From: Hemicentrotus pulcherrimus
Lineage: Eukaryota; Echinodermata; Echinoidea; Camarodonta; Strongylocentrotidae
DNA: 64,000 nucleotides
Assembly (NCBI GenBank): GCA_003118195.1
Contig: BEXV01000050.1
Span: 159,795 to 223,794 of the forward strand
Reading direction: 5' to 3'
In this document: one piece after another, positions 22,101 through 55,803 of the stretch
Layout of the letters: the number at the start of each line of letters is the position of its first letter
How positions within the stretch are numbered: the first letter of the stretch is position 1
Notes under the pieces: generated by a model
Seen by the model: the letters and a program-made list of their open reading frames with translations, nothing else
What the model was told of the DNA's origin: nothing
Database searches by the model: none
Program-made: the position numbers and the translations under genes

Positions 22101-25100
22101 ATTATTCTTCCTTCTGTCATATTCTCAAAATCAGTAATTTGATGATTTTCAGATGAATGTAATTCTCCCTCATAGGCTTTCCGGTAGTTATTGTCAGGGG
22201 GAGGGGATAAAAATAAGAATGATATCTCTTTTGTTTTTCTGTACAGTACATAAATTTGCACTAAACAAAACAATCATTTTACCAGCAAAGAAATCAAATA
22301 CCTTTTTCTTCATTCTTCTCACAACATTTTGAATTGTACCATGTTGTGAGCTCATACAATCTTTGATAACTTTAAGTTTTATCTCTGTTGTAATGAACCC
22401 CAACATGTACAATATCAATCATATGAATTAGGCACAGAACATCAGTTGACATGGGTGCTAGACTACCCCCATGAGCCCACCCCACCCATCCCCGTACACA
22501 TACCGGTAGAACAAAGTAAGAAGCTTGGTCGTTCACGATTCTATTTTTCTTTCTTTCCCGGACTACCATGGTACATTCTCTGTAGGGGATGGTAATACAA
22601 GGTAGTTGATAATCCTCAGGTGCTAATGATGCAGAACAACCCATTTCCCTCACCAGATGGTACTCAATTGATTTTGATGAAAATCTCTTTTCGCCAATGT
22701 AGCAGTGTCCCCTCCCTTCCAGGAATTCAACTTGTGAAAGTACAAAAAGTGTGAATGATCCTCCTGTTGTTATAGGCTTTTACGTTCATGACTCATTCAA
22801 GCTCGAAATTATGTTACTTCAATTTTCATGAATGTTTTTCCTTTGTTTCTGTGACCATTTTATAATGCTTCTATATTCTAACAATTACATTTTGACTACT
22901 ATCGTTTTGATATACAACGATATATCCAGAAGTTCCAGAAAATCTTATATTGGTATGCTGCATTTTATGATACTTAATTTTCTGTCTTCTTTGGTATGAT
23001 TGCTTCGCATTATCAAATCTTTAAGTCATTAATTTCTTATATATCATATTAATTTTTCTCTCTTTGTTCTTTTTTTTTTTTTTTGTAGTGAACTGAGTCG
23101 CAATGAGCTGACCACAGTGGACAGTCTGGTCTTCAGTGGCCTAGAGTCTCTAGAGGAACTCAGCCTTAGTCGCAACCAGCTCACCGACCTGATGGATGGT
23201 GCCTTCTACGGGCTCAACGCCATCCAACAACTAGAGCTGGATGGCAACGAACTGACCACCATCAGCCGCCGGTGGCTCTTTGGTCTCAAGTCCCTGCTCC
23301 ATTTGACGGTCGCCCACAACCGCATCAACGAGACGGAGGCCTCCGGCTGGGAGTTCTGTCCCAACCTGGAGTACCTGGACCTCTCTCACAACAGGCTCAC
23401 CACCCTGGAGACGGAAGAAGAGAGCGTCGGAGAGAGCGGGGGTCCTGCTGCTCAGGGAACCAATGGAGGTGCTCCAGGGTCTGTAGGGGTTCCTCCTTGG
23501 CCGCCTCTATTGAGGGAGCTCTACATCAATCATAACAGGATCACTCAGGTGGCAGATGGAGCATTCATCCAGCTCAATCTCCTCCAAGTTTTGTAAGTCT
23601 GAGCTGTATTTAGAATGCTACCATCTTTTTTTAAAGTATATAATAGTATATATTTGATCGATAAACACAGTAAAGCACTGTGAAACCTTGGAATAATAGC
23701 ATTATAAAGTCTATTGTAGAGTATATATATTGTATTGGCATAGACCTTCAGCTCCTCCTTCCATATTGTCACTACCAGATCCATGAGTCAAGACTTGGCT
23801 GGCTATATTTGCTGTTATCATGCATATCTTCCAGCATTGGATGTATTGTAACACTACCCTAAAGAGATTCACCTAGAGACGAGATGCGTTGAAGTGTTCC
23901 TTTTTCACACTTTTCTCTTTCTTCAATGGCTTTACCTTGCAGGGACCTGAGCGATAACGTCATTGCCTGGACAGTGGATGACATGACGGGTGCCTTTGAG
24001 GGTCTTGAATCATTACTTAGATTAGGACTGGCCAACAACAACATCAATTCCATCTCCAGGAGAGCATTCAGTGGACTTGTCAATCTCCAGTCTCTGTAAG
24101 TCACATCAATAATGTCTCTGTCATTTAAGGTTTTTTTTGGGGCGACGGTGGAGGGGGGGGGGGGGGNNNNNNNNNNNNNNNNNNNNNTTGATTCTACATC
24201 ACTTGCGAAAAAACCCTATACTTTTACAACTGTATATTGTTATCATCTCAATTAAGAAATCATTTCAGATAGCATCCTGCATATAATTAAATGCTCAGCT
24301 TAGAAGAGATATCTGTTCAGTTGTCAGTCACAAAGCTGTTTGTATGACGGCCGAATCGGAAGCTGGTCGGCGCTCCGACGAGACAATGCCATTCTCAATG
24401 AATGAATCATACTGCACTGTCATGTACAGTGTTACCGGTCTTAAGTGGTTGCACATGTTAAAACTTCAAAATCTCTAGATTGTATGTAGGTCAAACTATG
24501 CAAAGAAATGATAGAATACCATCAGAACCCAAGTTAATAACCAACTTCATACGCTAGATCCTGAATTCGTACCTTTGGGATGCTACGCTGAAGTTTGTTC
24601 CTTTGTTAGTGGTTTTAAGAAGGGAATTTATTGAAACGTTGACGAGCTACGTTTTCTTTTTCATTTTCATTTCTTCAGGGACTTTGCTGGGAATGTTATC
24701 ACCACAGTGGAGAACAATGCATTTGAAGGCATGCCCCAGCTCACCCAACTGTAAGTATAAGCATAAAAATAGAACTGTATTGCATTCTGGAACAACCATT
24801 ACTGCATTCATATGAAGTAACCTGACAATGTTGATGCCATTATAAGCATGTAAGACTAATCTCGGTAATACAGAATCAAGCTTCTCTGGTTAATGAAAAT
24901 ATAGAAAGATTAATAGAGCAAGCTGTACCTAGATAGTGGAATTTTACTTTCTCAAATCTTTTATTAGTTTATTTTGCCACTTTGCTAAGATTAGCCATCA
25001 TATCTAATCCCCTTTTCTGTACACCTTGCCTCTTTCAGACTGGTGAACAGTTCTAGCGTGGTGTGTGACTGTCAGATGGCATGGTTCCCAGTCTGGATAA

Positions 25101-25477
25101 AGGAGAACAATCTTGGTGAAGGAGTGGATGGACGCTGCGCACATCCAGATACTCTCCAGGGCTTGGATATCTTCAGTGTCGATCCGGAAGTGTTTACATG
25201 TGGTAAGTAGGTCCCACAAGGGAAATTGTATGTGATGTTGATTATGTTGGGGGTTCGACCTACCCATATGCAGCTCCCTACTCTTGCTCACTTACTCACT
25301 CTCCCTCTCTCTTCCTCTGTATCCTCTTTGTCTTCTTCATTTCTCTCCCTTTCTGTTATTTCTTTCTCTCTCTCCCCCCCCCCCTCCCCTCCCTCATCCA
25401 TTTTTGCCATCACATTGTTTCCTTCCCTTTTCTCGTTTACCCTCTTCTCTCTCCCACTCTCTCTCTGTCTATCTCTC

Positions 25478-25508
<31 letters not shown>

Positions 25509-28500
25509 TTCTTCTATCTTTGTCCGTCACTCTCCTAGTTTGTATCTGTGACATTGGCCCACATTCCCTTTCCTCTGCCCCTCCCATGCTGGCCCATATC
25601 AGTCTCCTCTAACCTTTATCATAAGCCATGAGATAACCTACTTTCACCTCCAGGAAACTTTAAGTCGAGCTGACAAGTTACAAATTGTTGCAACTTGCTT
25701 TGCCATGCCCCCACATCCTTTAGCTGACATAGTTTTGTAAGACAAATAAAGAGTGATGTTGAAAGACCAGATTATAGGTTGTTGTATTCTAGTCGCTCGC
25801 TCTCCCACTCTCCTTTTTAACTATTTGTTTTTTATGCAGTGTCTCATCTTTTCTGCTATACATCTTCTACACTCTCCTCCTTTCTGTTATCTTTTTTGTA
25901 TAGGTCTCACATCTTAATTTGTTTTTGTTCTCTCTCTCTCTCTCTCTTCCTCTCTCTCCTTTCCTCACTCCCTTATGGATATTATATAAAATATGTTCTG
26001 CCTTCATCAAGTGTTTATCCCTCTGTCCTGTAAGATTAAACATTTAGCAATCAACCTGTCATATTTGTGCATCCTCGTTGGCAGGAAAGGGGCAATATTG
26101 GACCTAAAAGATACTTGAACTCAATATTGCTGTTAGTGATGTTGTAACTTTTGACAAATGGCCAATTACCCTGTCATGCTCCTCATCCAGAGTTACCTGC
26201 TAGAGGGTTTAGCAAATGTCAATACCATCAGCATGCGTTAAAAACATCATGTTCGACATGGAAGTAGCAAAGTCTTGTTTTGTTTACCTCTGAATTGTTA
26301 TGTTTCTGCTACAGTTTTTGACAGAGAAAATTGATGTTTTTGCTAAATCCCTTTGGTTTATTATCATTGTTACCCTTCTTTTTCTTGTTGCAGATGATCG
26401 CCTGAAACCTTTCATCATCCGTGAACCTGAGACAGTGACATCACTGAAGAATGACAATGTGTCTCTGATATGCACAGCTGGCAGCACAAGCGATGTCCAG
26501 GTCACAATGCTATGGAAGAAAGACAAGGTATGTTACCTTCTCAACTCCCTGTTACATATTTTCTCAGCCACTTCTCTTCAGATCCATATATCTTTCCATA
26601 CCCTACCTTTAATGTTGTCCTGCGGCATCTCTATAAATCACTTGTGGTGGATAGACATAAATCCCGTACACACCATCCTCTCTTGATTTCAATGTTCACA
26701 TCTCATACAGCGACCAGTAGCAAAGATAAGTAGTAGAAAATATATTTTTTTTGTCTGGAAGATCTGAATATCACACTTCAAGTAATAGCCATTTTTCTGT
26801 GGTAACGCCCAAAACTGATTAAACGAAAGACGTTTTTAGAAACTTTAGAATCTTCTTGATGAGATGCTACTTCCACTCTGTGAGTGAACACCTATACCTC
26901 CAGAATTATAAGCACAATGGGAAAATAGTTAATATAGTCTCTGGATTCCTGATGTGCATTACGTCCTAGATTTCAATTGATGTTGTGTTCTAAAATGACA
27001 GCGCCAAGCTTATCATTGGCAAACACCAACCGTATGACTCTTCGATGCTGCTAATAAGTATCGCCTGACAAGTGTTTAACCCCTCTGTCCCGTAAGATTA
27101 AACATTGAGTATGACTCTTGATTAGTTTTGATGATTTTCTTTCCTTGTTTTCATCATCTTCAGGCAATCATGGAGGATGCGAACCCTATCTACTTTGAGA
27201 GGCTGAACCCCAGCGGTGTGAACGAGTACACCTCTGTGCTCAACCTCCCTCACATCAAGGAGGAAGACCAGGGGAGGTACCAATGCATCATCTCAAAAGA
27301 GTTTGGCGTCACATACTCCAAGAAGGCCAGAGTCACTGTGCACAGTGAGTATCTCATTCCAAATACTTCTGTGTTTTAGTAGCCTAACCATCACATGTCT
27401 CTTATGTTGGCCATCTTCTATATATGCTTTGTGGGAATATTTGGTGTAAAACTTTGGTGGTCATTGAAACACTTTTTATTTTCTTAGTGAACATTTAAAC
27501 AGATTTTGCTTGTTTTATTATATTGTAAAGGAGAAAGTAATTTTCTGCCAATTGTAGTTTAGATTTCGTAATGATTGTGATTACACTTTTGTTCACTCTT
27601 CAGTTTACCCATCATTCACTGTCACTCCACGTCATGTCAGTGTACGTGTTGGAGGGATCGCTGAACTCCCCTGTGCTGCCACAGGACAACCCACCCCAAA
27701 GATCGCTTGGCAGAAGGACGGAGGCATCAACTTCCCTGCTGCCCGCCAGCGCCGCATCAAGGTCAAGACTGAACTTGCAGAGTTCTACATCGACAACGTT
27801 CAGATAAGTGACACGGGTGTGTACACATGTACCGCCCTCAACGCCGCAGGGACCATTAGCACCAATGCTACTCTGACCGTTCTGGAGCCGCCTCTCTTCA
27901 CCCGTCAAATGAAGGACCTGACCGTCGAGGTCGGAGAGCCAGCAGTTCTGGAGTGTAACGTTGAAGGAAGTCCCCGTCCCAGTATCAGGTGGTTCAAGGA
28001 TGAGGAGCCCTTCACATTGTCCGATGGCATGCACCTGACTGACTTTGATCGCTACCTGATCATCATGAATGCAGCAGGCAGGGATGGTGGCACATACACA
28101 TGTGAAGCAACAAATTCCCTGGGTGTACGGACAGACACTGCAAAGCTTGTAGTTACTCAGAGTAAGTTTCCTTCCTCGGATCTTATTATTTTTCATAAGA
28201 TGAATGTATTTAAAAATTGATAAGTAAAAAGTATCCATCTAGATTTGAGAATGATATTATGTAATTCACTCAATAATGGCAAAGGCATATTGAAGATGCA
28301 ATCACATCCATCTTGTTTAAGTCTGTTTGTGTTAATCCATTTAGAAACAATATTCTTGATACATGATGAGCAATCAGCCTGAATGTAATCAAATTGACTG
28401 CACAAGTATCTTTTGTTCTTCGAAACACATGACTTTGATTGGTCAATAAGTATTCTTACCAAGCATCATTCCATAATGTTAATCAAAATGACTTCTTTGT

Positions 28501-40240: not shown

Positions 40241-40960
40241 TTAATCCATATAAACACCATACACTGTTACGACAGCATACATGGTTCGATTCTGACTGGA
40301 CACCGTCGCGAACCCATCCGTGTCTGTGTTCCAAAGATACCGACTCGCGATCACCACTTCCTGACCAGGCACTCTCGATCCGATGTCGACATTGACTACC
40401 AGACGATACCGGTCGAAACTGCACAACATTTTCACTTTCTGTTTAACCGTGTCGGATATAGCTGCTGCCAAGACTGCGGCTCTCTTTGGGTCGTAATCCT
40501 CATGCTCAAAAAGGTACCCCAGAACTTCTCGAATGCATTCCTCAACTTTACCCGGCGTGAATTTGTGTCCCGAATTCGGTTCGAGCTGGTACGAGTTTTC
40601 ATATTCCAATGTCCCATCACGGTGATCACCTCGTAGCGCCCCGACACCGCCATGAATCTGACGGTATTTCCACCACATAGACGTCGTGATGTCTTTGCCA
40701 AAATAGAGCGACGCCCCTCGCTTCAAGTTCATAAGACTCGCCGCACGATCTCGATGAAGCGCCGGTGGTCGTCGTTGCGTCGACGTCGAAGCTTCGCTAT
40801 CGCGGTCGCTCGGGGCATCGCTGAACGTCAACGCTCGAACTCGTGTTGATGTCACGGATAAATTGGTTTCAATGAGTTGACTGACCTTGCGTGGTTTAGC
40901 GACCACTATCTCTCCGGTTCGAGAGCCACCTTCCATTGAAATGCTGTCACCTTTCTTCAT
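40241..40960 (-). CDS. Tctex1-domain protein (dynein light chain Tctex-type, DYNLT5-like)
   Basis: The protein has 239 residues if started at the ATG at 40958-40960, the first ATG in this frame; the upstream open frame to 41080 has only a GTG. The C-terminal 120 residues form a Tctex1 domain: ENSYQLEP, PGKVEECIREVLGYL, ISDTVKQKVKML, RYRLVVNVDIGSRVPGQEV, ASRYLWNTDTDGFA and the ending VVTVYGVYMD. Family members are light chains of cytoplasmic or axonemal dynein and bind the intermediate chain. The N-terminal half is Ser/Arg-rich and looks disordered. The whole frame is uninterrupted, unlike the neighbouring genes. A splice acceptor-like CTACAG ends just before 41013, so a 5' exon is possible and the start is uncertain. 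Resemblance to DYNLT5/TCTEX1D1 is by memory of motifs only. Confidence 0.87.
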   Translation of the reverse strand: MKKGDSISMEGGSRTGEIVVAKPRKVSQLIETNLSVTSTRVRALTFSDAPSDRDSEASTSTQRRPPALHRDRAASLMNLKRGASLYFGKDITTSMWWKYRQIHGGVGALRGDHRDGTLEYENSYQLEPNSGHKFTPGKVEECIREVLGYLFEHEDYDPKRAAVLAAAISDTVKQKVKMLCSFDRYRLVVNVDIGSRVPGQEVVIASRYLWNTDTDGFATVSSQNRTMYAVVTVYGVYMD

Positions 40961-41080
40961 CAGATGCTGATTGTTCTCTATCGCCACTCTATCACGTTTT
41001 ATCTCATTATCCACTGTAGCTATAATAATGTGCCAAATACTAAATCTTTCCCCCGATGCTCCAAACTGATGCTTTTGCAC

Positions 41081-42948
41081 TACGACTCATACAGTTCCTG
41101 TCAAATTTAGTTGTTAATTTGACATCATTTTTCCATCAACAATGTTTTCTCCATGCACAATATTTTGGTCCCAAGTTTCCAGGGTATGAAAACAGACTTA
41201 CTCTTACACGAAAGGCGCCAATTAACTCCAATTTGGAACTATGATGAATGTATTCGGCTATTTCCAATCCATGCACTACCGCCATTCACGTGTAAAATAC
41301 CTTGTGCACCAGTTGATGAGTAAACATAACAGAAAATACGATTTTATTTATATACTGTTGTGAATTACCATAAACAAAAGGCATTCGTCATGCCTGCAAA
41401 GAAATAAAACCTCCAATTCGTCCTCTTATTTTTCGATTCGGACACTCCTAAACGACCACCACATTTTACTGCCGCTGTATATTTTGGAACAATGCCATAT
41501 GGCCTTACTGAAACTGGGTCTTTTATGATCATCACATATGTGTTTCCACTGAGTATATTTGAACAGTCCTTAACACGGAATATTCCGAATAGGTAATCGG
41601 CCACTTGAGCTCAGTCAGTTACGTTGTCACGCATATGTTTGGCCTGATTACGATCAAGAATAAACAATTAGCTTGACTTGGCCCAAAGAATAAACACACT
41701 CATGCTTTCGAGTTTTATCCACGATACAATTACAGTTTCAAACACAGCAGTAGTGAGTTCGGTGGGTTAGTTTTACAAACATTCAAACAGAGGGATGTTG
41801 GTGTTATAAAAGTGATGGTAAGGTATGATTTTCAACGAGGTTGGTCTAAGAAGGTATATGTTACATAATCTGAATAAATAAATAGTAATTTTTGTGCCCT
41901 TATTTTCGTCACCAGAAATTTGAAAGGATACAAAAGTGAAAGAAAATTCAAATTCACAATGATTTCAAAAATTGGGAACACTGGCGACAATTCAGGCCTA
42001 CTTGACTGCTGTAGGCCGAAAACTGAGGAGCTAAATGACACTATATAGTGCAATACAAATTATTCTATTTGAATTACACTCCATAATGTGTACACAATCT
42101 TCATACAGGTGCAGTTATGATATGCATACAGTACATATACTTTGCTGTTTCTCCCAAAGGACAAGGATCTTCTTGAATAATTTCAAAATAATCTTTAGTT
42201 TTATTTTGAATTTCCAACTGCGAGTATGCATCTATTGTGATATTTAATAGGCTCATCAGCAAATATTTAGCTTTAAATATTATCGTAATGTTACCACTAG
42301 ATCAGTTGACTTAATAAACAATCAACTCCATTCACCAGGCCAAGCGAGTAACTATAAAAATACAATCAGGCTTAACGAGCCTAAAAGTTCAAGTTTAAAG
42401 TTCAGATTTTTATTACGATGAATCTAATAAAAGGGTAATTAAAGCTTGTAAATATTGAACCTATTATAGCACCGATCGATTCGAGATTTATTACAATCTA
42501 TAAAAATGTATCACTCAAACTTTACACCAAACTAACAAAATATCTGGGTTGGACTGATCCAGGGGTGGGAAGGAGGTACGTACATGATCGTACCTTGAAA
42601 TATTTAAAGATTATTATTTATTTTTGTTGATTAGAAAGAGCTTTTGCGTGTTTTTAAAAGAGTTTTATGATTTACGTGTACATTTAATTACAGTACAAAA
42701 AAAAACTTGATCTAAAGGCAACTGCTCTCTAAGTTTGAAACAAAAATCTAGGATCCATAGATAGTCAAAGCAAAAATCTTCTTGTTAGACAGAAGATAGG
42801 AAGATAGTAATCTTTTTTGTGTACCATAGATTTTTGTTGTTGTAAAGATTTAACATATTATAGATTTGATTTTTTTGAGAAAAAGCCCTTGTGTTTTTGA
42901 TGAGCTTTCCGACGTTGGTGTCCTTATCCTATCTTTCCAATTGTGTTC

Positions 42949-44891: not shown

Positions 44892-44964
44892 ATGGCCTCA
44901 TCAAAGTTGTTGAATTTCAACGTTGGTGTTCTTGGCCATGTTGACAGTGGGAAAACGTCACTTG
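44892..44964 (+). CDS. EEFSEC: EEFSEC exon 1 (start, P-loop)
   Basis: Starts MASSKLLNFNVGVLGHVDSG, the G1 P-loop. Donor GTATGT in phase 1. The ATG context is strong. Confidence 0.96.
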
Positions 44965-47900
44965 GTATGTTTTCAATCATTTTGTGTATCTTTTTATATT
45001 AGATCTAGATCTAGATCCATAACTAGTCTTATGTACAGTCCCATTGCGATATATTTGTGTAAGTTGAAGCGCGAATGGACAAATACAAATTATTAACATG
45101 AATACGTTGAACCATTTTGACCACTACTAGTGTTTACTTGAGTTATTTGAATCACCTGTACCTGTCACATGGGCCTTGATAAAGTTAGAAGATGCAAATA
45201 CTCATGACATTTTATTTTAAAGTCATCAGCATCAGCATCAGTTCGGAAGTGTTGGGTGATCCTGTTGAAACCAATACGCATTAGCATTGACTCTCTATGC
45301 TTTGCTGGAGCGGTTGAAACTTCCGATCGTTATTGAGTGGTGCTTCATTCTAACCTGAACTCCTTTTGCTTGCATGGTAGGTGGAGGCACATGTTTAATT
45401 TTATGGAGGCATTTCGTGCTGTCTCGTTTCATTTAAAATAAATCATATATATATACATATAAGTTTAGCTGGACTACGCTACGACTAGTCTACTCAACTC
45501 TTGAAGAAAGAAGAAAACGGGCACGATTGTCGATGTTCTACAAGATGGCAAATAACAAAATTGCGATACCAATATAATACCGGATTACATCAAACTGAGG
45601 GAGCAAACTACAAGGAGAAGCAACAACAACGATATATGAGAATAGGCTCTTCGATGGACACTTACAAATTTAGTTATTTCCCCAGGACACTGAAGGACTG
45701 GGACGAGCTACCTCAGATCATCATCGAACTGCCTTCTTTGGAGCAGTTCAAGGTGGCTCTTGAAACAATTTAGTTCCCTTTTCAGGAACTGTACCACATA
45801 GAGCTGTATATAACAACTCTATGCTTTACCCTCATCTAGATGCTGAACAGGCGTTTATGAGTATTACCATATAAGTAGAAGTAGAAGTCTACAGCTTGCA
45901 ATATATTCTGATAATGCTAATAGTGATACAATATATTATTGATGAATTATGATTGTGATGTTTTGTTATTCTGTTTCACAATTTTCCAAGTTTTAGAGTT
46001 GTAAAAAAATAAAAAGCAATAACAAATAGATCTATGTTAAAAGACGGTCAAGACCTATCAAGACATTGGGAAATTTACCAAATAATTTCAAGTTATCTGT
46101 ACAAGATTTACATTTAAAAGTTTAACCGAAGTGCAATATTAAATCCCTGATCCAAGTCAAAATAGACAAGTTCAACAAATGCATTAATATAAGTAAGTTG
46201 CTTGATGAAATTCTAAGCATAAAGTCTATTGCTTTGTTAAATCTTGCTGTCAAATCCACTGTAGGTCATGAATCAATTTAGTTAAACAGAGTAAGTCATA
46301 TTCTAATTGCTAAGTCTGTAAACATACCATCGAAATACTTGCCATCATTTGGAAGATCACTATTCTCTTTTGTCTTTCGGTCAATAAAAAAAAGATGTGT
46401 GAGGTAGAAATACCTGACTACTATTTGGTATTTGGTGGGTACACCGTATTCATTTTACGTCGCTTTACTGATCATGATTTTGAAATATTTTCATCATCTA
46501 TTCATCATCCATTATTTATGCAGCCAAGGCACTCAGCACAACAGCATCTACAGCAGCTTTTGATAAAAATCCACAAAGTAAAGAGAGAGGGATCACATTG
46601 GATCTAGGTAAGTTTAGGGAAACCAGGAAGGGTCTACTCTTTAAAAACACTCGCATGTTTGAAGACTTGCAAAGTAAAAATGGAGAAAATGCACGAGGAA
46701 GAATAAAGATACCACCTACAGTTGTGCGAAATATCTCTTGAACAAACAATTTCAAACAAAATTGAAATAGACTCACAATGAATGCATATTCCTTGCTCAA
46801 AAAGAAGAGAAGAAAGATGATGAAGTGATGGTTGGGCGTTTCATATATCAAATTTATTTTCAATAATCATTCTTGCATTGAGTTTTAGTCTCAAAGAGAT
46901 TAAGGATACCTCTGTATGTTTTGTTGTTAATATATTGGTTCGAAACATTTTTTTTCTTGTTGGTTTTATTTTCATTCCGCAGGATTTTCTTCATTTTCTG
47001 TTGATGTTCCTGATCACATACCGGCCAGTGATTATGACAAACTACAGTTTACCTTAGTGGATTGCCCAGGCCATGCCTCTCTCATCAAGACCATCATTGG
47101 AGGTAGGGAATACCCCAAAAGTTTTGCTTTTGTCATATTTATGGCAGTATCTACCGGAATCCAAAAGATATTACAATTCAGAGTATCTTTTTAACCCACC
47201 AAGATGCATTTTGTAGTTCTTGAAGGAAAAAGCAGTTTGGAAATGGGATTGTATATATATCTGTCATCATTTTGTGTTCGGATTTCATGGGGTGAATAAA
47301 GTTTATAAACTTGTGTATCATTCTGTTATATGTTGCTGTTTTTCTCTTGTTCTCTCCCCTCTACGAAACAGATGAATGTTGTTTTTCTTTCTCTCTCTTC
47401 AAGCTATAGATGATATCAAATACACTCTTTTATTAAGATTAGGATATGACAGAAAAATCATTATCTTTTAAGACCGATTCACTTTGGTGGCACTTATGAA
47501 ATAAGAGTTTTAGAAGAGTACAAATTTATTTGAAGTTTGATGATGAGTAGATGTCTTAAGTGAACGCTATATTTTTGCATACTATTCTATTGCAGGAGCA
47601 CAAATCATTGATCTCATGATGTTGGTCATAGATGTAACAAAGGGAATGCAAACGCAATCAGCAGAGGTAAGTTTGACAAATGGTTAACCTTTTGCATACA
47701 GTAATGATTCCTTTTAGATGATAATTATCAAGTCTCAATTTTGAAAAAAAATCCCCCTGTAGAAATATATAAGATGACCCCCTCCCCCTCCCTCCAAAGA
47801 AAAGAAGAGAAAACACACAGGCACACACACCTATCAGTAAGATTCTAGTATCTAGACTAATGTGTTAACTGGGATTTTCATAGGAATGTGTCTCCTCTCT

Positions 47901-50900
47901 AGAATTGCAGAAGTACCCTTTATTATCCATGCCAAAAATACCAACTTGCATTTTGGTTCCCTTAATAAACCAGCAATTTGTCATTTTTATGAGCTTTCAT
48001 GTAATGTTGAGTTGTGGATATGTTTGATTTGTTTATCATTTTTAACAATTTAGAATGTTCATTTGATAAAACTGAATTTGAAATGATTGAGATTCCTTCT
48101 ATTTGTCATTTTCACTCTCTCAATCTTTTGTATGCAGTGTCTGGTGATAGGTCAGATTGCTTGTGAGAAGATGTTTGTTGTCCTTAACAAAGTGGACCTG
48201 CTACCTCCAGAAAAGAAAAAACAGCAAATTGAAAAGGCAAGTAGCAGGAGGTTAAGTGCTCAGTCAGTCAGCTTTTAGAGGCCTTAAAGATAAAGTATAC
48301 AGTAGTACTAGTCGTGCAATTGAATTGCAAAAGAAACTGTCAAGAAGGTATTGGGGATTATGTAGTACGTTCATTAATTTTTTTTTTTGTTGAGGTTTAG
48401 AATCATTCAAATGATTTCCTGAGAGCCAGAAGGGTGTCAACTCTGTGTAAAAGTACATGAGTAACAGTAACGCCCTTCTGGTCTCACCAGGCGATACATG
48501 CAAACTGATGCACTGCATATAACAACTCTCGAAAGACAAACCTAAAAATAATTTTTTACAAATACAGTCTCATTATGATTTTATACAACAATTTTCCTTC
48601 CAGTTTCATCTGTTTTTAACAATGCCGCTGAAGGTGAATATGAACTTCCATGTAAAATGAAAATGCACTAACAATGAATAAACATTTTCACTCCTGCAGA
48701 TGACTAAAAGGATGCTGAAGACGTTGGAGTCTACCAAGTTTGCCAATTGTCCTGTGATCCCTGTAGCAGCTAAACCAGGAGGACCTGATGCACCCGATGA
48801 AGGAGCTGAAGGAATACAGACTCTTATTGAGGTGAGGTTGCAGAACTACTCCAGAAAACCCTAATACACATATTCACCTAGCCATGACCTTAGTTCCTGA
48901 CCCTGATCCTGATACTAAATTTGACCCTAAACCTGTACCTTAGCCCTAAACCTGTCCCTGACCTTAATCCGAACCCTAACCTTAATGATGACCCCAATTC
49001 ATTATGGGGTATAACCGTATTCTGCAGTTACAATCAGGTTACAGATCTTCTTTTTTCAAAAGATATCCTTGGAATGAATTCCGTAAGATTTTCTTCATAT
49101 ATAGATAATGGATACAAGAAATGTTGATAAACTGCTGTCTCCTTTTTAACACTGGTCAGAAACTGATGTAACTGCACAAGAATTATATCAGGATTTTCTT
49201 TCTGATTATAACTTGCAGTTATAACATTGTCATCATTTTTTGTACAGGAGCTGAAACGCCAGACGTACATCCCCAAGCGTGACTCCTCTGGTCCCTTCCT
49301 TTACTCTGTTGACCATTGTTTTGGTATTAGAGGTCAAGGCACTGTGATGACCGGTACAGTACTCAGTGGAAAAATCAACATTGGTGATGTAAGTTCAACA
49401 GTAACCCATTCACCTTCAGATTTTATTTGACTAACATTGATTTAACTTCTATTAAAAATTGTCGGCCATAGTAGGGTTTTTACATATGAATAGAATGTAG
49501 ATCTGTGATACATAGTTAATTGTATTCCCTCTATCTCAAAAGACAATAGAATATTGCACTTGCATGTCTATAGGTAATATTCCATTGTAATAACATGATT
49601 TCCATTTTTTATACGATATGATGTATAATTCTCTTTGAAAATTTATTTACCACCAAAAGATGGCCTTGTTGCTAAACATGCCAAGATGAGATATACACGA
49701 AGTTTAATCTTAAATTTTTAATTTTTAATTTTAGGTCAGTAGACTTGGATTATGTTTTTCACAACTTAATATGAGAATTGATAAATCAATTTCTGTTATT
49801 TGTTCATATTTCATGAAAGTTATCAATCTAGGTATAACAGATAGTAAATAATTTTTCTGATGATTCTTAGTCAAATTCACTTCATAATGCTGATTATATT
49901 CAGAGTATTTTATATTTTGGGGCCTGCTAATGGGCCACCCTGCCTATAAATAATATCCAAACCTCAATTGTTCATCATATTGACTTGCATAAAGCAGGCG
50001 AGACCGCCGAGAGTGTTTCCCTTGTTTACTTTTATGAATAAATAGTTGTCTTGAAAATTATGAACTATAATCACACGTACCGTATTAGAATTTATGTTAT
50101 AATTTTGTGTTTTTCTTTGATCGATGAAGCATTTGATAGTCATTGGAAAATCTTCTATCATATCTTCTCTTCTATATATTCTCTCAGAAAGTTGAAGTGC
50201 CGTCACTGCAGATCACACGTAAAGTCAAATCCATGCAGATGTTTCGCAAACCTGTCAACTCGGCCATCCAGGGTGATCGTGTAGCTCTGTGTGTTACTCA
50301 GTTTGACCCTAAGCTATTGGAGAGGGGTTTAGTGTGTGCTCCAGGGATACTGCCCATAATAAGCGGTGAGTGTGTCTCATTGAGAAAAAGGATGACGAGA
50401 CAATGCTGATAGGCATTTGGTCGATTGATTGACATGTATGTATGTATTTATGTATTTGTGAAGGCAGTTCTACAAGGATTGTGAAAAGCTAAGTGTCGTT
50501 TCTTTGACTTGCTCTCTCATTTGAAAATGTTGCATTCATCACATTTCTGTGTCTATCCCTACATAACAGATATTCAATGTAAATCCATGCTTTGCTTTAA
50601 ATTTTATTTTTATATATTTTACAGCTCTTGTGATTTTTGAGAATAATTTCCAGTCATTGACTGTGTGATTGTTTATTACTTGATTTGTTATGATGGGATC
50701 TGTAGTAAAATATTTGTGAACTTTGAATAAGATCCCATCTCCAAAATAAAATCAAAATAGGCAATCATAATTGCTGCTTTGTTTTAGATGGACTTCATAA
50801 TACTGTATGTCCCACGTTTAGTAATTATAGGTAAATTTAATTCCAGATAGCTCATAAGTTATAGAATTGGTTGCAGTCATGAGGAAATGATGATTGATTT

Positions 50901-53762
50901 TCTTCTTTTTTTTTCTTCTTTTTTTTTATTCCAGCTGCCATTGTATCAGTACACAGAATACCATACTTCAAAGGAACATGTGCAACCAAGGCAAAGTTTC
51001 ATGGTATATGTTCTATTGATTTATATCACACTTTAGAGAAACTCAAATGATCACATATTCAGACTGTCAGATATATTTGAAACATGAGATGAAATTTAGG
51101 TTCAGATTCTCTTATGCATAAAAGTATTTATGATTGAGTGAAATGTATCACTATTGTATTTTATGCTGGAGATTTTTAAAGAAGTTGTCTATGAATAAAG
51201 CTAACAGCACTCACAAAGAATACCAGCAATTATTGATGGTCTGGCACAATTTGGAAAGGTTAATATTTCATATGTACCTCAAAAATTTAGACAGACAGAT
51301 TTCCATTAAAAGCAAAAAAAGCGTAAAGAATACAATTACCTTTGTATCTTAAGTTTAATTTCATATTTCCTGAATCGTTTGATATAAAGTAACTCTTTTA
51401 CCATATCACTTTGTGCCTGTGGCTTGTTAATTGATATCATGGTGTATTGCAAGTGCTATTCAGTACTATTATTCCCTTTGGGATGCCAAGTCAGCCTAAA
51501 GGTGTAAATTGTACTTAGCTGTAAACAATTTCTTTTTAGGAAGCACTGTTTAACTATTCTGTATTCTGAGATGAGTTTGTATCTTCTATGTTTGTATTAC
51601 AGTGACCATGGGCCATGAGACTGTGATGGGGAAGGTATCTTTCTTTGGACCAGCCCCGGGTCATCAATATCAACCACATCATCAAGAATCAGGTATGCAT
51701 TATTTGAATTGAAGAAATGTGCTCTTTCAGAGGCTTTGAAATCTAGGTGATGTCAGGCCAGAGGTAGCAATTTTCCAACAAGCAAAAGTCAAACATGATA
51801 AGATTTTATAATTTGCCAACAGGGATGAAAGTTGCTCATCAACACATGATCAGGCATTAGATATGGATTATTTAACCATAAAAAGTATACCGGTATGCTT
51901 GTTTGGAGGCTTTATATCTGAGGGGGTGGGTGGTGGAGGGGGTTAATCCATACTCTCAAGATGAAGATCTCTGCCTTGAAGCAACCAGTCGCCACAAAAC
52001 TTTGCACCCATCTCCAAAGTCGTGTAGGAACATTTTCTTACAGGGAGGGCTTGACAGACCCCCTGTCTTTTTAGGATTATATGTATTCCAATCATTACAT
52101 CATACTATTAAAGCATTTCCAGAGTTCATTGTGGGAAGCAAGTATCTACATTGAAATGTCTGGTCAGATTTATACAACAGATTTTCCAACTAGTTAGCAA
52201 TTTTCCAACAAGCAAAAGCCTAACATGCTCAAAATTTTATAATTTGCTGACAAAGATGAAGATTGCTCCTCAAATTTGAAAATTTGCCCTGAGATGTTTA
52301 CAATTTTTTTCCAACAAGTATTAAATTTGCTTTTATTTTTATAAAAATAACTGATTTGCCGACAAAATTGTAATAGGAGTTTCAAACTGCTGCCCCCTTT
52401 TTTCAGAGTTCAACTTTGAACCAGAGTACCTGTACGAAGAAGAACTCCACACGGCGGACAGTACCAGCAAGCAGGAGCATAACAAGGAGAACATTCCAGG
52501 AGCCGCCAGTGAAGGAGAGAAGGAGAAGCCAGGGCCAACTCAACAGTGGGCCTTGCTGGAGTTTGAAAAGCCACTAGCGTGTCCAAGGAACTGCTTAATC
52601 ATTGGGTCAAAATTAGATACAGATATTCATATCCTTTTAATCTTCCAATGTTTTTGACAATCTATGTATTTTTAGCTGTTTTTAATTATGACTGCCATGA
52701 ATAGAATTTCTATATGGCTGTCTTGTACACTGTTTGAAATTTGTCTTAATGTGTATATAGACATGTTTTGAATAATGAAGATCAACTGTAAAATCCATAA
52801 ATGTTAGCTTCTGGAACATTTCTACAAATTTTAGATTTAATTGCTGATACTTGGTGATAAATGTACTTGTTGGTGTTTTTAGTGTTTGAACCCAGAGTAT
52901 TTTAATCATTTTTAGGACAGTATTTTGTTCAAATGTCTGGCAAAGTGGTCATCATGAAACATGTTTCATAGGTCTGTGTTCACTTTTATTCCTTGACTAC
53001 ACTCCTGCACATACCAATACTTGTAGATTAGCATTCCATGGTAAACTACTACATGCAATAACAGACAAGGTAGGTACTAGTATTTGTTTTGAGATTCCTA
53101 CCAAGAATTACATAATGTGCAAATTAATGTATTGTTAATCATCAGTGGAAACTGGAAAGGGGGATTTTTTACTACTTTGTCATCTGTAGGCATGATTTAT
53201 TATTCCCTGTGAAAATGTCATGTCATGGGAGTTTCAAGTGAAGGGAGCATTGTATTTCAACATGTCTTGTGCTTCCAACAGGATGGTTCCAGGTTTGTGT
53301 TTGAATTAAAGTATCACAAAATAATGTACCTGACCTTCATTGAAGCATTAACTTTCTTGATCACTATAATAATTTTGGTAGTCTTCATTTTGTTTTGTAC
53401 AAAAGATTATGCATAGTATTCTTTATGATGACGGCATCATTTTTTAAGGAAGGAATTTTAAAATGAAAACACATAGAACGTCTAATGAGTTTCTGAATTT
53501 CAATTTAATTCCATAAGGTCAAAGAACACAAAAATACAATTTTCGTCAGAATTAGTTATTTTGTAGCAGATCATAAATGACAAGACTATGTTTAGATTTT
53601 ATGTTGTATGTATCATACTATGTCACAATGTTTAATTTATTTTTGCAGAATTATGTTGAAACAGTGCTACCACAACTGAAGATCTATAAAACAAAACTAA
53701 GAGAAGGACTTGTAGACAGGGTAAGTTTAATTACTTGTTTCTCTGTGTTTTTATGTCTTTCT

Positions 53763-53799
<37 letters not shown>

Positions 53800-55306
53800 T
53801 CCTTTATTTCTTTCTCTCTTTCACATGTTCTCACTTTATCTGCCTCTGTCTTAATGAATATGGTTATGGAGTTTGGGTTTAAAATTTATTTTGCAAAAAG
53901 TCATCAGTAATTTGGCCCTGTCTTATGAAGAGTTGCGATTGATCCAAATCAATAGCAAGTTTGCACTCTGCTATCTCTTATGTACATAATGGCGATTGAT
54001 ATCAATCGCAATTAAGTTGCGATTAATATCAACTTTTCAGAAGACGGTATTATACTTGTCTTCAACTCTATACCTAATCCATGACAAAAGAGGTAAAAAC
54101 CATTTTAATTGTTATAATTCAACAGATGACAGATGAGTATAGTGTGATTGGGAGGTCATTATTCAAGAAGGAGACCAACCTACAAACATTCACCAATCTC
54201 AAGGTTCAACTCTCGACAGGAGAGGAGGGTACCATAGAGGGAGGATTCGGACAGAGTGGAAAGTTCAAAGTCAGGATACCAAGTAAGAAACTGATTTTAC
54301 TTATGTAACCTCTTTTGATTGAATATCTGTCCTATTTTAGATTTAATCACATATTAAAACTGTAATTTTGCTTGTGAGTGCTACATTGTTTGCTTTTGCC
54401 TAGACAGTTAATATCATAGACAGAAAGTAGATTATTATCTTGTAATGGCTTGATTTTCTGAAGCTGTGTTTTATCATATATGAAAAGGATTTATTAAAAA
54501 AAATAGCCACTAATCATAATTCCTTGAATTGTCACATTTGGGAATAGACCATTAAAATATGCCTGAACTCTGGTTTGGAACTTTAAAACAATTTTACTTA
54601 AAAAATGAATTTTTATTTTATTTCAACAAAATCATATAATGGTAGCACAGTGATAACAGGGAAAACGTTTTGAATTATTATTGTTATGAAAACAGATCAT
54701 AAATGTTATACTCGTCAGCCATTACTGTTTTAGTTTTGGGTTCCACATTTTGATATACTTCTATTGGACAATCAAAGGAATGTTTTTACATAAATTGTGT
54801 TTCATTTTGTTTTTCATTGTATCACTTTCTGTTTTGTTTTGAAACACAGATGGATTGCAATCAGAAACAGTGCAGATGCTCAGTGCATTAGGAGGAAAGA
54901 AGAAAGGAAGAAAAGCAAAAGCAGGTAAATAAAGTGAAAGTATACTTGGCTCTTTATGTTAGGAGTTCCATATTGCTACACCATATTCAAAATATGAGCT
55001 TCAAATTCACTTCTATAAAGAGATATTCCAAGGTTATGTACATCTCATGAATCTTTATCAGATCATTGGAATAACTGTTATTAAATGATTTCCTTTACTC
55101 TGTTTTACTTCATTGTACTTTGTTATTAAAAAAAAAAGTTGTTATCATTTTTCTTTCATTTTTTCTTTCCGTTGCTTTGATTGACAGAATCTGGCCAAGA
55201 ACCCAGTGCAGCCAAAGAGTCACATGAAGAGCATCAACCAATCAAAATCAGCCTTAGATTCAAGAGATACATTTATGACACAAAGAAACAGATGATCCAG
55301 AAGTGA
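44892..55306 (+). CDS. EEFSEC: Selenocysteine-specific elongation factor eEFSec, complete
   Basis: A cytosolic GTPase that delivers Sec-tRNA(Sec) to the ribosome at UGA codons with SBP2 and SECIS RNA (family knowledge). Exons: 44892-44964, 46524-46607, 46983-47102, 47596-47666, 48138-48236, 48700-48831, 49248-49388, 50188-50365, 50935-51003, 51603-51692, 52407-52628, 53011-53069, 53649-53720, 54126-54282, 54850-54924, 55188-55306. They join in phase to 586 codons plus TGA; the human protein is about 596. GTPase motifs: GHVDSGKT (15-22), RGITLDLG (46-53), DCPGH (79-83), NKVD (133-136) and PVAAK (170-174). Domain IV and C-terminal matches include FGQSGKF and the ending FKRYIYD. The ATG context (A at -3, G at +4) is favourable. 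Intron 5 is GC-AG and intron 11 is U12-type AT-AC. Intron 1 holds a LINE remnant. Confidence 0.97.
45480..45776 (+). mobile_element. LINE 3' end: reverse-transcriptase C-terminal remnant
   Basis: Lies in EEFSEC intron 1. Reading across frames gives LEERRKRARLSMFYKMANNK, then FSYFPRTLKDWDELPQII and LPSLEQFKVALETI with a stop at 45774-45776. This is the typical tail of CR1/L2/jockey-like reverse transcriptases (FFPRTxxDWNxLP...SLxxFKxxL). At least one frameshift separates the parts. A GTAGAA short tandem tail follows near 45872-45890, as such elements often have. Confidence 0.75.
46524..46607 (+). CDS. EEFSEC: EEFSEC exon 2 (switch I)
   Basis: Acceptor TTATGCAG, donor GTAAGT, phase 1 at both ends. 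It encodes AKALSTTASTAAFDKNPQSK and ERGITLDL, the G2 element shared with EF-Tu-like factors. Confidence 0.95.
   Translation, partial: PRHSAQQHLQQLLIKIHKVKREGSHWI
46983..47102 (+). CDS. EEFSEC: EEFSEC exon 3 (switch II, DCPGH)
   Basis: Acceptor TTCCGCAG, donor GTAGGG, phase 1 at both ends. It contains QFTLVDCPGHASLIKTIIGG, the G3 motif. Confidence 0.96.
47596..47666 (+). CDS. EEFSEC: EEFSEC exon 4
   Basis: Acceptor ATTGCAG, donor GTAAGT, phase 1 in and phase 0 out. It encodes GAQIIDLMMLVIDVTKGMQT, the segment between G3 and G4. Confidence 0.95.
48138..48236 (+). CDS. EEFSEC: EEFSEC exon 5 (NKVD, GC donor)
   Basis: Acceptor TATGCAG. It encodes CLVIGQIACEKMFVVLNKVD (G4) and ends QQIEK. The following intron starts GCAAGT, a GC-AG donor with otherwise ideal consensus. 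Reading to the next GT would not give the conserved MTKRMLKTLE junction. Confidence 0.93.
48420..48485. repeat. Hairpin repeat B in EEFSEC intron 5
   Basis: Left arm TGAGAGCCAGAAGGGTGT, right arm CGCCCTTCTGGTCTCA. One-base bulge, loop of roughly 30-35 bases. It resembles the repeat at 28851-28926 in its CAGAAGGG core and following G/T-AACTC. Confidence 0.6.
48700..48831 (+). CDS. EEFSEC: EEFSEC exon 6 (G5 region)
   Basis: Acceptor CTCCTGCAG, donor GTGAGG, phase 0 at both ends. It encodes MTKRMLKTLESTKFANC and PVIPVAAKPGGPDAPDE, closely matching human eEFSec. Confidence 0.96.
48881..48996 (+). repeat. Degenerate CCCTAA/CCTGAC hexamer array
   Basis: EEFSEC intron 6 contains loosely repeated units such as CCCTAAACCTG, CCCTGACCTTAA and AACCCTAACCTTAA. 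They resemble degenerate interstitial telomere-type repeats but are too diverged to be a true telomere tract. Confidence 0.6.
49248..49388 (+). CDS. EEFSEC: EEFSEC exon 7 (domain II)
   Basis: Acceptor TTGTACAG, donor GTAAGT, phase 0. It encodes SGPFLYSVDHCFGIRGQGTV and MTGTVLSGKINIGD, the start of the domain II barrel. Confidence 0.96.
50188..50365 (+). CDS. EEFSEC: EEFSEC exon 8
   Basis: Acceptor TCTCTCAG, donor GTGAGT, phase 0 in and phase 1 out. It encodes RKVKSMQMFRKPVNSAIQGD and CVTQFDPKLLERGLVCAP, nearly identical to the human protein. Confidence 0.96.
50935..51003 (+). CDS. EEFSEC: EEFSEC exon 9
   Basis: A long T-rich tract with CCAG precedes it and GTATAT follows; phase 1 at both ends. 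It encodes AAIVSVHRIPYFKG and ATKAKFH. Confidence 0.93.
51603..51692 (+). CDS. EEFSEC: EEFSEC exon 10
   Basis: Acceptor TATTACAG, donor GTATGC, phase 1 at both ends. It encodes VTMGHETVMGKVSFFGPAPG; HETVMG is conserved with human eEFSec. Confidence 0.94.
51764..51842 (+). repeat. 79 bp direct repeat, copy 1
   Basis: Shares TAGCAATTTTCCAACAAGCA and following sequence with 52194-52272, about 430 bp apart in EEFSEC intron 10. About four in five positions match. Confidence 0.7.
52194..52272 (+). repeat. 79 bp direct repeat, copy 2
   Basis: Partner of 51764-51842; ends about 135 bp before EEFSEC exon 11. Confidence 0.7.
52407..52628 (+). CDS. EEFSEC: EEFSEC exon 11 (U12 donor)
   Basis: Acceptor TTTTCAG. 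It encodes the variable acidic linker, then QQWALLEFEKPLACPRNCL and IIGSKLDTDI. It ends after the first base of the His codon, and the intron begins ATATCCTTTT. Confidence 0.93.
53011..53069 (+). CDS. EEFSEC: EEFSEC exon 12 (after the AT-AC intron)
   Basis: The upstream intron ends in AC at 53010. The joined codon gives D-I-H-T-N-T-C-R-L-A-F-H-G, identical to human at this place. It leaves in phase 0 at GTAGGT. Confidence 0.93.
53649..53720 (+). CDS. EEFSEC: EEFSEC exon 13
   Basis: Acceptor TTTTGCAG, donor GTAAGT, phase 0. It encodes NYVETVLPQLKIYKTKLREG and LVDR. A CT microsatellite begins about 40 bp after the donor. Confidence 0.94.
53768..53818 (+). repeat. CT microsatellite in EEFSEC intron 13
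   Basis: CT run with small interruptions about 45-95 bp after the exon 13 donor. Confidence 0.88.
53926..54052. repeat. Dispersed inverted-repeat element in EEFSEC intron 13
   Basis: TTGCGATTGAT (53933-53943) is repeated inverted at 54001-54011, and a diverged direct copy TTGCGATTAAT follows at 54017. The ends GTCTTATGAAGAG and CTTTTCAGAAGAC look like mutated inverted ends. Probably a short non-autonomous element. Confidence 0.5.
54126..54282 (+). CDS. EEFSEC: EEFSEC exon 14 (domain IV)
   Basis: Acceptor TTCAACAG, donor GTAAGA, phase 0 in and phase 1 out. It encodes EYSVIGRSLFKKETNLQTF and FGQSGKFKVRIP, the conserved core of domain IV. Confidence 0.95.
54850..54924 (+). CDS. EEFSEC: EEFSEC exon 15 (basic segment)
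   Basis: Acceptor AACACAG, donor GTAAAT, phase 1. It encodes NGLQSETVQMLSALGGKKKG and RKAKA; the basic run corresponds to the Lys/Arg-rich stretch near the human C-terminus. Confidence 0.88.
55188..55306 (+). CDS. EEFSEC: EEFSEC exon 16 (C-terminus)
   Basis: Acceptor TTGACAG, phase 1 in. It encodes an acidic linker, then ISLRFKRYIYDTKKQMIQK and TGA, matching LTFKRYVFDTHKRMVQ of human. Confidence 0.95.
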
Positions 55307-55518: not shown

Positions 55519-55803
55519 TAATAATAATGATAATAATAATAATAATAATAATAATAGCCTAATAGCCCACTCCAAATTTCATTAAACAGAAACAGAATTT
55601 TTTTTTGCCCAATTGATCGTGAGCTCGGCAGCCACTGAGCAGCGCCAGATCGACGTTGCTCTATCCCTTATTGTTGAACGCGAAACAAGGTAGCAACAAC
55701 TCCCATCTTTTAACATCTTTTGGTATGACGCGGCTGGGGTTCGAACCCACGACCTCCCGGTTGTGAGGCGGACGCTCTACTGACTGAGCCAACACTCCGA
55801 TCT
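55519..55803 (-). mobile_element. tRNA-derived SINE
   Basis: On the minus strand, a tRNA-like head starts near 55803. It has an A box TGGCTCAGTCAGTAGAGCG (55773-55791) and a B box GGGTTCGAACC (55738-55748). A non-tRNA body of about 170 bp follows, and the element ends in an ATT microsatellite (55519-55556). The anticodon stem does not pair well, so it is not a working tRNA gene. It lies 200-500 bp past the EEFSEC stop. Confidence 0.8.

What the first reader, a model, noticed from the sequence alone, without database searches (positions are those of the whole stretch)
52629..53010. U12-type AT-AC intron in EEFSEC
The intron starts ATATCCTTTT, the canonical AT-AC minor-spliceosome donor. It ends in AC, with TTCCTTGAC (52989-52997), an exact match to the U12 branch-site consensus TTCCTTRAC; the branch A is 14 bases before the intron end. 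Only these boundaries restore the conserved DIHTNTCRLAFHG of eEFSec, and no GT-AG solution does. AT-AC introns are rare, so finding one in the selenocysteine elongation factor raises the question of how old it is and whether it is shared with vertebrates.
Basis: partly seen in the sequence, partly recalled or inferred. Interest (0 to 1): 0.78.

Follow-up and report, generated by a model that had tools for sequence, protein, structure and literature searches.

The report
Minor-spliceosome intron in sea-urchin EEFSEC
One intron in a sea urchin's gene for the selenocysteine elongation factor carries the exact signals of the rare minor (U12) splicing machinery; it looks real and is of a well-known kind, and whether other animals share it could not be checked here.

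Summary
Window 44892-55306 (+) encodes a 586-residue eEFSec in 16 exons. The closest listed proteins are Lytechinus variegatus (89%) and Strongylocentrotus purpuratus (85%), so the animal is very probably a sea urchin. Intron 11 (52629-53010, 382 nt, phase 1, in the His427 codon) is AT-AC. Its first nine bases match RTATCCTTT 9 of 9; TTCCTTGAC (52989-52997) matches TTCCTTRAC 9 of 9, its A 14 nt before the last intron base. The other 14 introns are 13 GT-AG and 1 GC-AG, none above 7 of 9 at either motif. Position +5 is C, not the G of U2-type AT-AC introns. The genome holds a full U6atac snRNA gene (134 bits) and exons matching two U11-protein families; U12, U11 and U4atac snRNAs were not found in the searches that were answered. 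Corrections: six boundary registers give the same protein, of which only AT-AC has usual termini; one GT-AG pair stays in frame but adds 20 residues. No transcripts or orthologous gene DNA were available: splicing is inferred, age is open. Verdict: new member of a known kind.

The parts
44892..55306 (+). EEFSEC coding region, 16 exons, 586 residues, 15 introns
   Evidence: Spliced alignment to human eEFSec, corrected by hand
52407..52628 (+). Exon 11, ends after the first base of the His427 codon
52629..53010 (+). Intron 11, U12-type, AT-AC, 382 nt, phase 1
52629..52637 (+). 5' splice site ATATCCTTT, 9 of 9 to RTATCCTTT
52989..52997 (+). Branch site TTCCTTGAC, 9 of 9 to TTCCTTRAC; putative branch A at 52996
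53009..53010 (+). 3' splice site AC, 14 nt after the A at 52996
53011..53069 (+). Exon 12 (59 nt), resumes with (H)TNTCRLAFHG

Best explanation
Intron 11 of this sea-urchin EEFSEC gene is a genuine U12-type AT-AC intron removed by the minor spliceosome. Inferred mechanism: U11 and then U6atac pair with ATATCCTT, U12 pairs with TTCCTTGAC, the A at 52996 attacks the 5' end, and exon 11 is joined to exon 12 within the His427 codon. Shown: the sequence signals, the protein continuity, the contrast with the 14 other introns of the gene, and a U6atac gene plus exons of two U11-protein families in the same genome. Inferred: the splicing itself and its dependence on the minor spliceosome. If the intron is kept, the frame stops after 435 residues inside domain III and the C-terminal domain is lost, so full-length eEFSec would depend on minor splicing.
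For: 9 of 9 donor and 9 of 9 branch site with the A 14 nt from the end; 14 other introns at most 7 of 9 at either motif. Protein junction matches human eEFSec and 119 of 120 listed homologues. Perfect pair in 4 of 300 shuffles. C at +5, whereas U2-type AT-AC introns of sodium-channel genes have G (PMC2831892 section 16). Phase 1, in line with the bias of minor introns away from phase 0 (PMC7367187 passages). U6atac 134.4 bits; PF16021 E 3.9e-9; PF18036 E 1.1e-6 and 1.8e-4. Kept intron: stop after 435 residues.
Against: No transcript evidence. U12 snRNA, U11 (24-base pattern) and U4atac were not found in this assembly, although the same family search does find U6atac. The 3' end does not lack pyrimidines: 10 of 15, against 8-14 in the other introns then modelled. 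An in-frame GT-AG alternative exists.
Confidence: 0.93

Rival explanations
1. A U2-type intron with AT-AC termini, removed by the major spliceosome, as in some sodium-channel genes.
For: AT-AC termini do not by themselves settle the type (PMC2831892 section 3); the 3' end has as many pyrimidines as the U2 introns of the gene.
Against: Known U2-type AT-AC introns have G at +5 (PMC2831892 section 16); here it is C. Donor and branch site match the U12 consensus 9 of 9 each, and the donor matches GTRAGT at only 2 of 6.
Confidence: 0.03
2. The true intron is GT-AG at 52650-52971, and this species carries a 20-residue insertion.
For: The frame stays open.
Against: 119 of 120 listed homologues have no insertion there; the donor GTTTTTGACA is a poor match to GTRAGT (sequence); the two perfect U12 motifs would then be coincidence.
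Confidence: 0.03
3. An assembly error makes an ordinary intron look unusual.
For: The assembly holds one copy of this stretch, so there is no second copy to compare with.
Against: The whole 586-codon frame is open across 16 exons; an error would hardly create two 9-base U12 motifs at the right spacing.
Confidence: 0.01

Closest known systems
U12-type (minor) introns, AT-AC subtype
   Same: Donor ATATCCTT, branch site TTCCTTRAC, AC end, short branch-to-end distance (review optimum 11-13 nt; here 13 nt after the motif, 14 after the A; PMC3584512 passages), phase 1
   Different: Nothing in the sequence; only the host gene was not found named as a minor-intron gene in the held papers searched
U2-type AT-AC introns (sodium-channel genes)
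   Same: AT-AC termini
   Different: Those have G at +5 (PMC2831892 section 16); this intron has C at +5 and perfect U12 motifs
EEFSEC of other echinoids and deuterostomes
   Same: Protein 89% identical to Lytechinus variegatus and 63-64% to the two Branchiostoma proteins listed, continuous across the junction
   Different: Their intron positions and types could not be read with these tools

Membership tests
U12-type intron, AT-AC subtype | 5' splice site RTATCCTT | tested here: met
   ATATCCTTT at 52629-52637, 9 of 9 to RTATCCTTT
U12-type intron, AT-AC subtype | Branch site TTCCTTRAC close to the 3' end | tested here: met
   TTCCTTGAC at 52989-52997, A 14 nt before the last base; review optimum 11-13 nt from the branch-site sequence
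U12-type intron, AT-AC subtype | AT and AC ends at a real exon junction | tested here: met
   Only register with usual termini among the six that give the best protein
U12-type intron, AT-AC subtype | No distinct polypyrimidine tract | tested here: inconclusive
   10 of 15 pyrimidines, against 8-14 in the 13 other introns then modelled
U12-type intron, AT-AC subtype | Minor spliceosome present in the organism | tested here: inconclusive
   U6atac snRNA and exons of two U11-protein families found; U12, U11 and U4atac snRNAs not found
U12-type intron, AT-AC subtype | Splicing depends on U12 and U6atac | not testable with these tools
   Needs RNA work
U2-type AT-AC intron | G at position +5 of the donor | tested here: not met
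   C at +5; criterion from PMC2831892 section 16
EEFSEC (eEFSec) | EF-Tu-like GTPase with eukaryotic SelB domain III and the eEFSec fourth domain | tested here: met
   PF00009, PF03144, PF21208, PF21131 above cut-off; human eEFSec E 4.6e-222

The most novel reading that the evidence does not exclude
The AT-AC intron at His427 is ancestral to bilaterians and still minor-type in several phyla, so that making eEFSec, and with it every selenoprotein, has been tied to minor-spliceosome activity since early animal evolution, perhaps as a regulated brake. The evidence does not exclude this, but no orthologous gene was examined.
Probability: 0.25. Interest if true: 0.45.

Novelty: new member of a known kind. 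Interest (0 to 1): 0.2.

Why it matters
A minor intron in the one elongation factor that delivers selenocysteine would make selenoprotein synthesis depend on the minor spliceosome: keeping the intron ends the protein at 435 of 586 residues. If orthologues share it, defects of minor splicing could lower selenoprotein levels, which is testable. As a single catalogue entry it is ordinary: a survey reports, for example, 330 minor introns in Priapulus and starfish densities comparable to vertebrates (PMC10639083 section 24).

Tried and rejected
Gene model. The first spliced alignment gave a false intron 10 (ATCA...GGAG), probably because human lacks residues there. A script with a wrong search string for that donor gave meaningless values from intron 10 on and was discarded. 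The donor was then read by eye and the intron set to GT-AG 51693-52406. A 75-nt exon (54850-54924) was missing from the 15-exon model; comparison with other urchin proteins showed it and it was added. The homologue and Pfam searches and the junction count used the 561-residue model without it; residues up to 523 are the same.

Age of the intron. No orthologous gene DNA was reachable: the genome has no held relatives and the genome collection is bacterial and archaeal. As a proxy I looked for protein predictions broken at the junction: 1 of 120 listed, P0022 of the sea cucumber Apostichopus japonicus. It differs from the intact P0005 of the same species here and also at the QSAE|C junction, which is GT-AG in this urchin, so it is weak evidence at best.

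Minor snRNAs. U12: Rfam family search 0 (its controls rang nowhere); 30-base pattern with up to 3 mismatches 0; 17-base pattern with up to 1 mismatch 9 places, of which three (L021, L022, L027) were given to Rfam without a match; all nine were read and look like repeats or unrelated DNA. U11: 24-base pattern with up to 3 mismatches 0; the U11 family search did not complete. U4atac: family search 0 (controls rang nowhere). U6atac: a 20-base pattern with up to 3 mismatches gave 22 places, fewer than its reversed control (41), but one is exact; five of the 22 were given to Rfam and two matched; the family search found three places. So the family search works for U6atac, and the U12 and U4atac negatives carry some weight.

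The genome-wide excess of ATATCCTTTT over its reversed control (963+902 against 603+546) was not used: base composition could explain it.

Literature. No held paper has EEFSEC with 'U12-type', 'minor intron' or 'AT-AC'. EEFSEC with 'U12' and 'intron' gave 2 papers: in PMC4244043 I saw passages and the terms are in unrelated sections; PMC3628982 was seen only in the listing. EEFSEC with 'minor spliceosome' gave 1, PMC9019238, listing only. EEFSEC with exon, intron and selenocysteine gave 24, listing only except passages of PMC4244043 and PMC3965025, which say nothing on U12 introns in this gene. PMC4291461 (passages) was not useful. U12DB, IAOD and supplementary tables could not be searched, so this does not show that the intron is unreported.

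Full report
What is there. The window lies in an unnamed 414-Mb assembly. A spliced alignment to human eEFSec, corrected by hand, gives a 16-exon gene at 44892-55306 on the + strand that encodes 586 residues with no internal stop. The best listed homologues are sea urchins: Lytechinus variegatus 89%, Strongylocentrotus purpuratus 85%, Diadema setosum 73%. Pfam places domain III (euk_SelB_III) at residues 302-437 and the C-terminal domain at 454-556 of the 561-residue model searched.

The intron. Intron 11, 52629-53010, begins ATATCCTTTT and ends CTCCTGCAC. TTCCTTGAC at 52989-52997 is the only TTCCTTRAC in the window on either strand. The junction splits the His427 codon after its first base (phase 1); this corresponds to human His438 (counted by hand on the alignment, with the tag offset recalled). 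Among the donor/acceptor pairs tried, six registers yield the same best protein, and only the AT-AC register has usual termini; the best GT-AG pair adds 20 residues.

More than chance. Each motif alone is expected about 1.4 times (TTCCTTRAC) or 6 times (RTATCCTT) in this window. A perfect donor with a perfect branch site, correctly spaced within 3 kb, occurs at this one place (two possible ends, of which only 53010 keeps the frame) and in 4 of 300 shuffles. The neighbouring introns are the internal control: of 14, 13 are GT-AG and one is GC-AG, and none exceeds 7 of 9 at either U12 motif.

Which spliceosome. Donor and branch site, not the terminal dinucleotides, define U12-type introns (PMC3584512 passages), and both are perfect. 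The known U2-type AT-AC introns carry G at +5 (PMC2831892 section 16); here it is C. The genome has a full-length U6atac gene (134.4 bits), whose AAGGA can pair with the UCCUU of the donor (read from the alignment), and exons matching PF16021 and PF18036; that these families are the U11 proteins 59K and 25K is recalled. Against this, U12, U11 and U4atac snRNA genes were not found in the searches that were answered, although the same family search finds U6atac. The assembly may be incomplete, so I count this as inconclusive. The 3' end is no poorer in pyrimidines than those of the other introns.

What it does. If intron 11 is kept, translation adds eight residues and stops after 435, removing the end of domain III and the whole C-terminal domain. 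Exon 12 is 59 nt, so skipping it would break the frame too. Removal of this one intron is therefore needed for full-length eEFSec. That minor introns are often spliced slowly and may limit expression is from a review (PMC8199999 passages); it was not tested here.

Age. Not settled. The protein is continuous across the junction in 119 of the 120 listed homologues, which says nothing about introns. One sea-cucumber prediction is broken there, but also at another junction. Four-eutherian and eight-vertebrate comparisons found no insertion of a minor intron, and loss is held to outweigh gain (PMC2831892 section 11), which favours an old intron; conversion of AT-AC introns to the major type is the rarer kind (section 15). 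On the other side, 194 of 267 vertebrate genes with a minor intron lacked that intron in their invertebrate orthologues (section 11), and minor introns are on average less conserved than major ones (PMC10639083 section 26). [quoted passage not shown]

Verdict.

Noticed in passing
48237-48699 (+): Intron 5 of the same gene is modelled as GC-AG (GCAAGT donor), a second, milder departure from GT-AG.
   Followed up: partly
23033-28220 (+): Open frames with leucine-rich repeats (23033-23593) and immunoglobulin I-set domains (27558-28217), suggesting an LRR-Ig membrane protein gene.
   Followed up: no
40241-41086 (-): Single long open frame with a Tctex-1 (dynein light chain) domain, E 1.9e-23.
   Followed up: no
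55726-55798 (-): tRNA-like stretch just after EEFSEC: Rfam tRNA 36.7 bits, but ARAGORN calls no tRNA in the window; perhaps a tRNA-derived repeat.
   Followed up: no
L010 1413-1531 (-), and G000:C465:7914-7984 (-): Besides the full U6atac gene there are a diverged copy (70 bits) and a partial one (37 bits) in the genome, perhaps pseudogenes.
   Followed up: no
L021, L022, L023, L024, L025, L028: GGCACTTAT-rich degenerate repeats that contain matches to a U12-like 17-mer by chance.
   Followed up: partly
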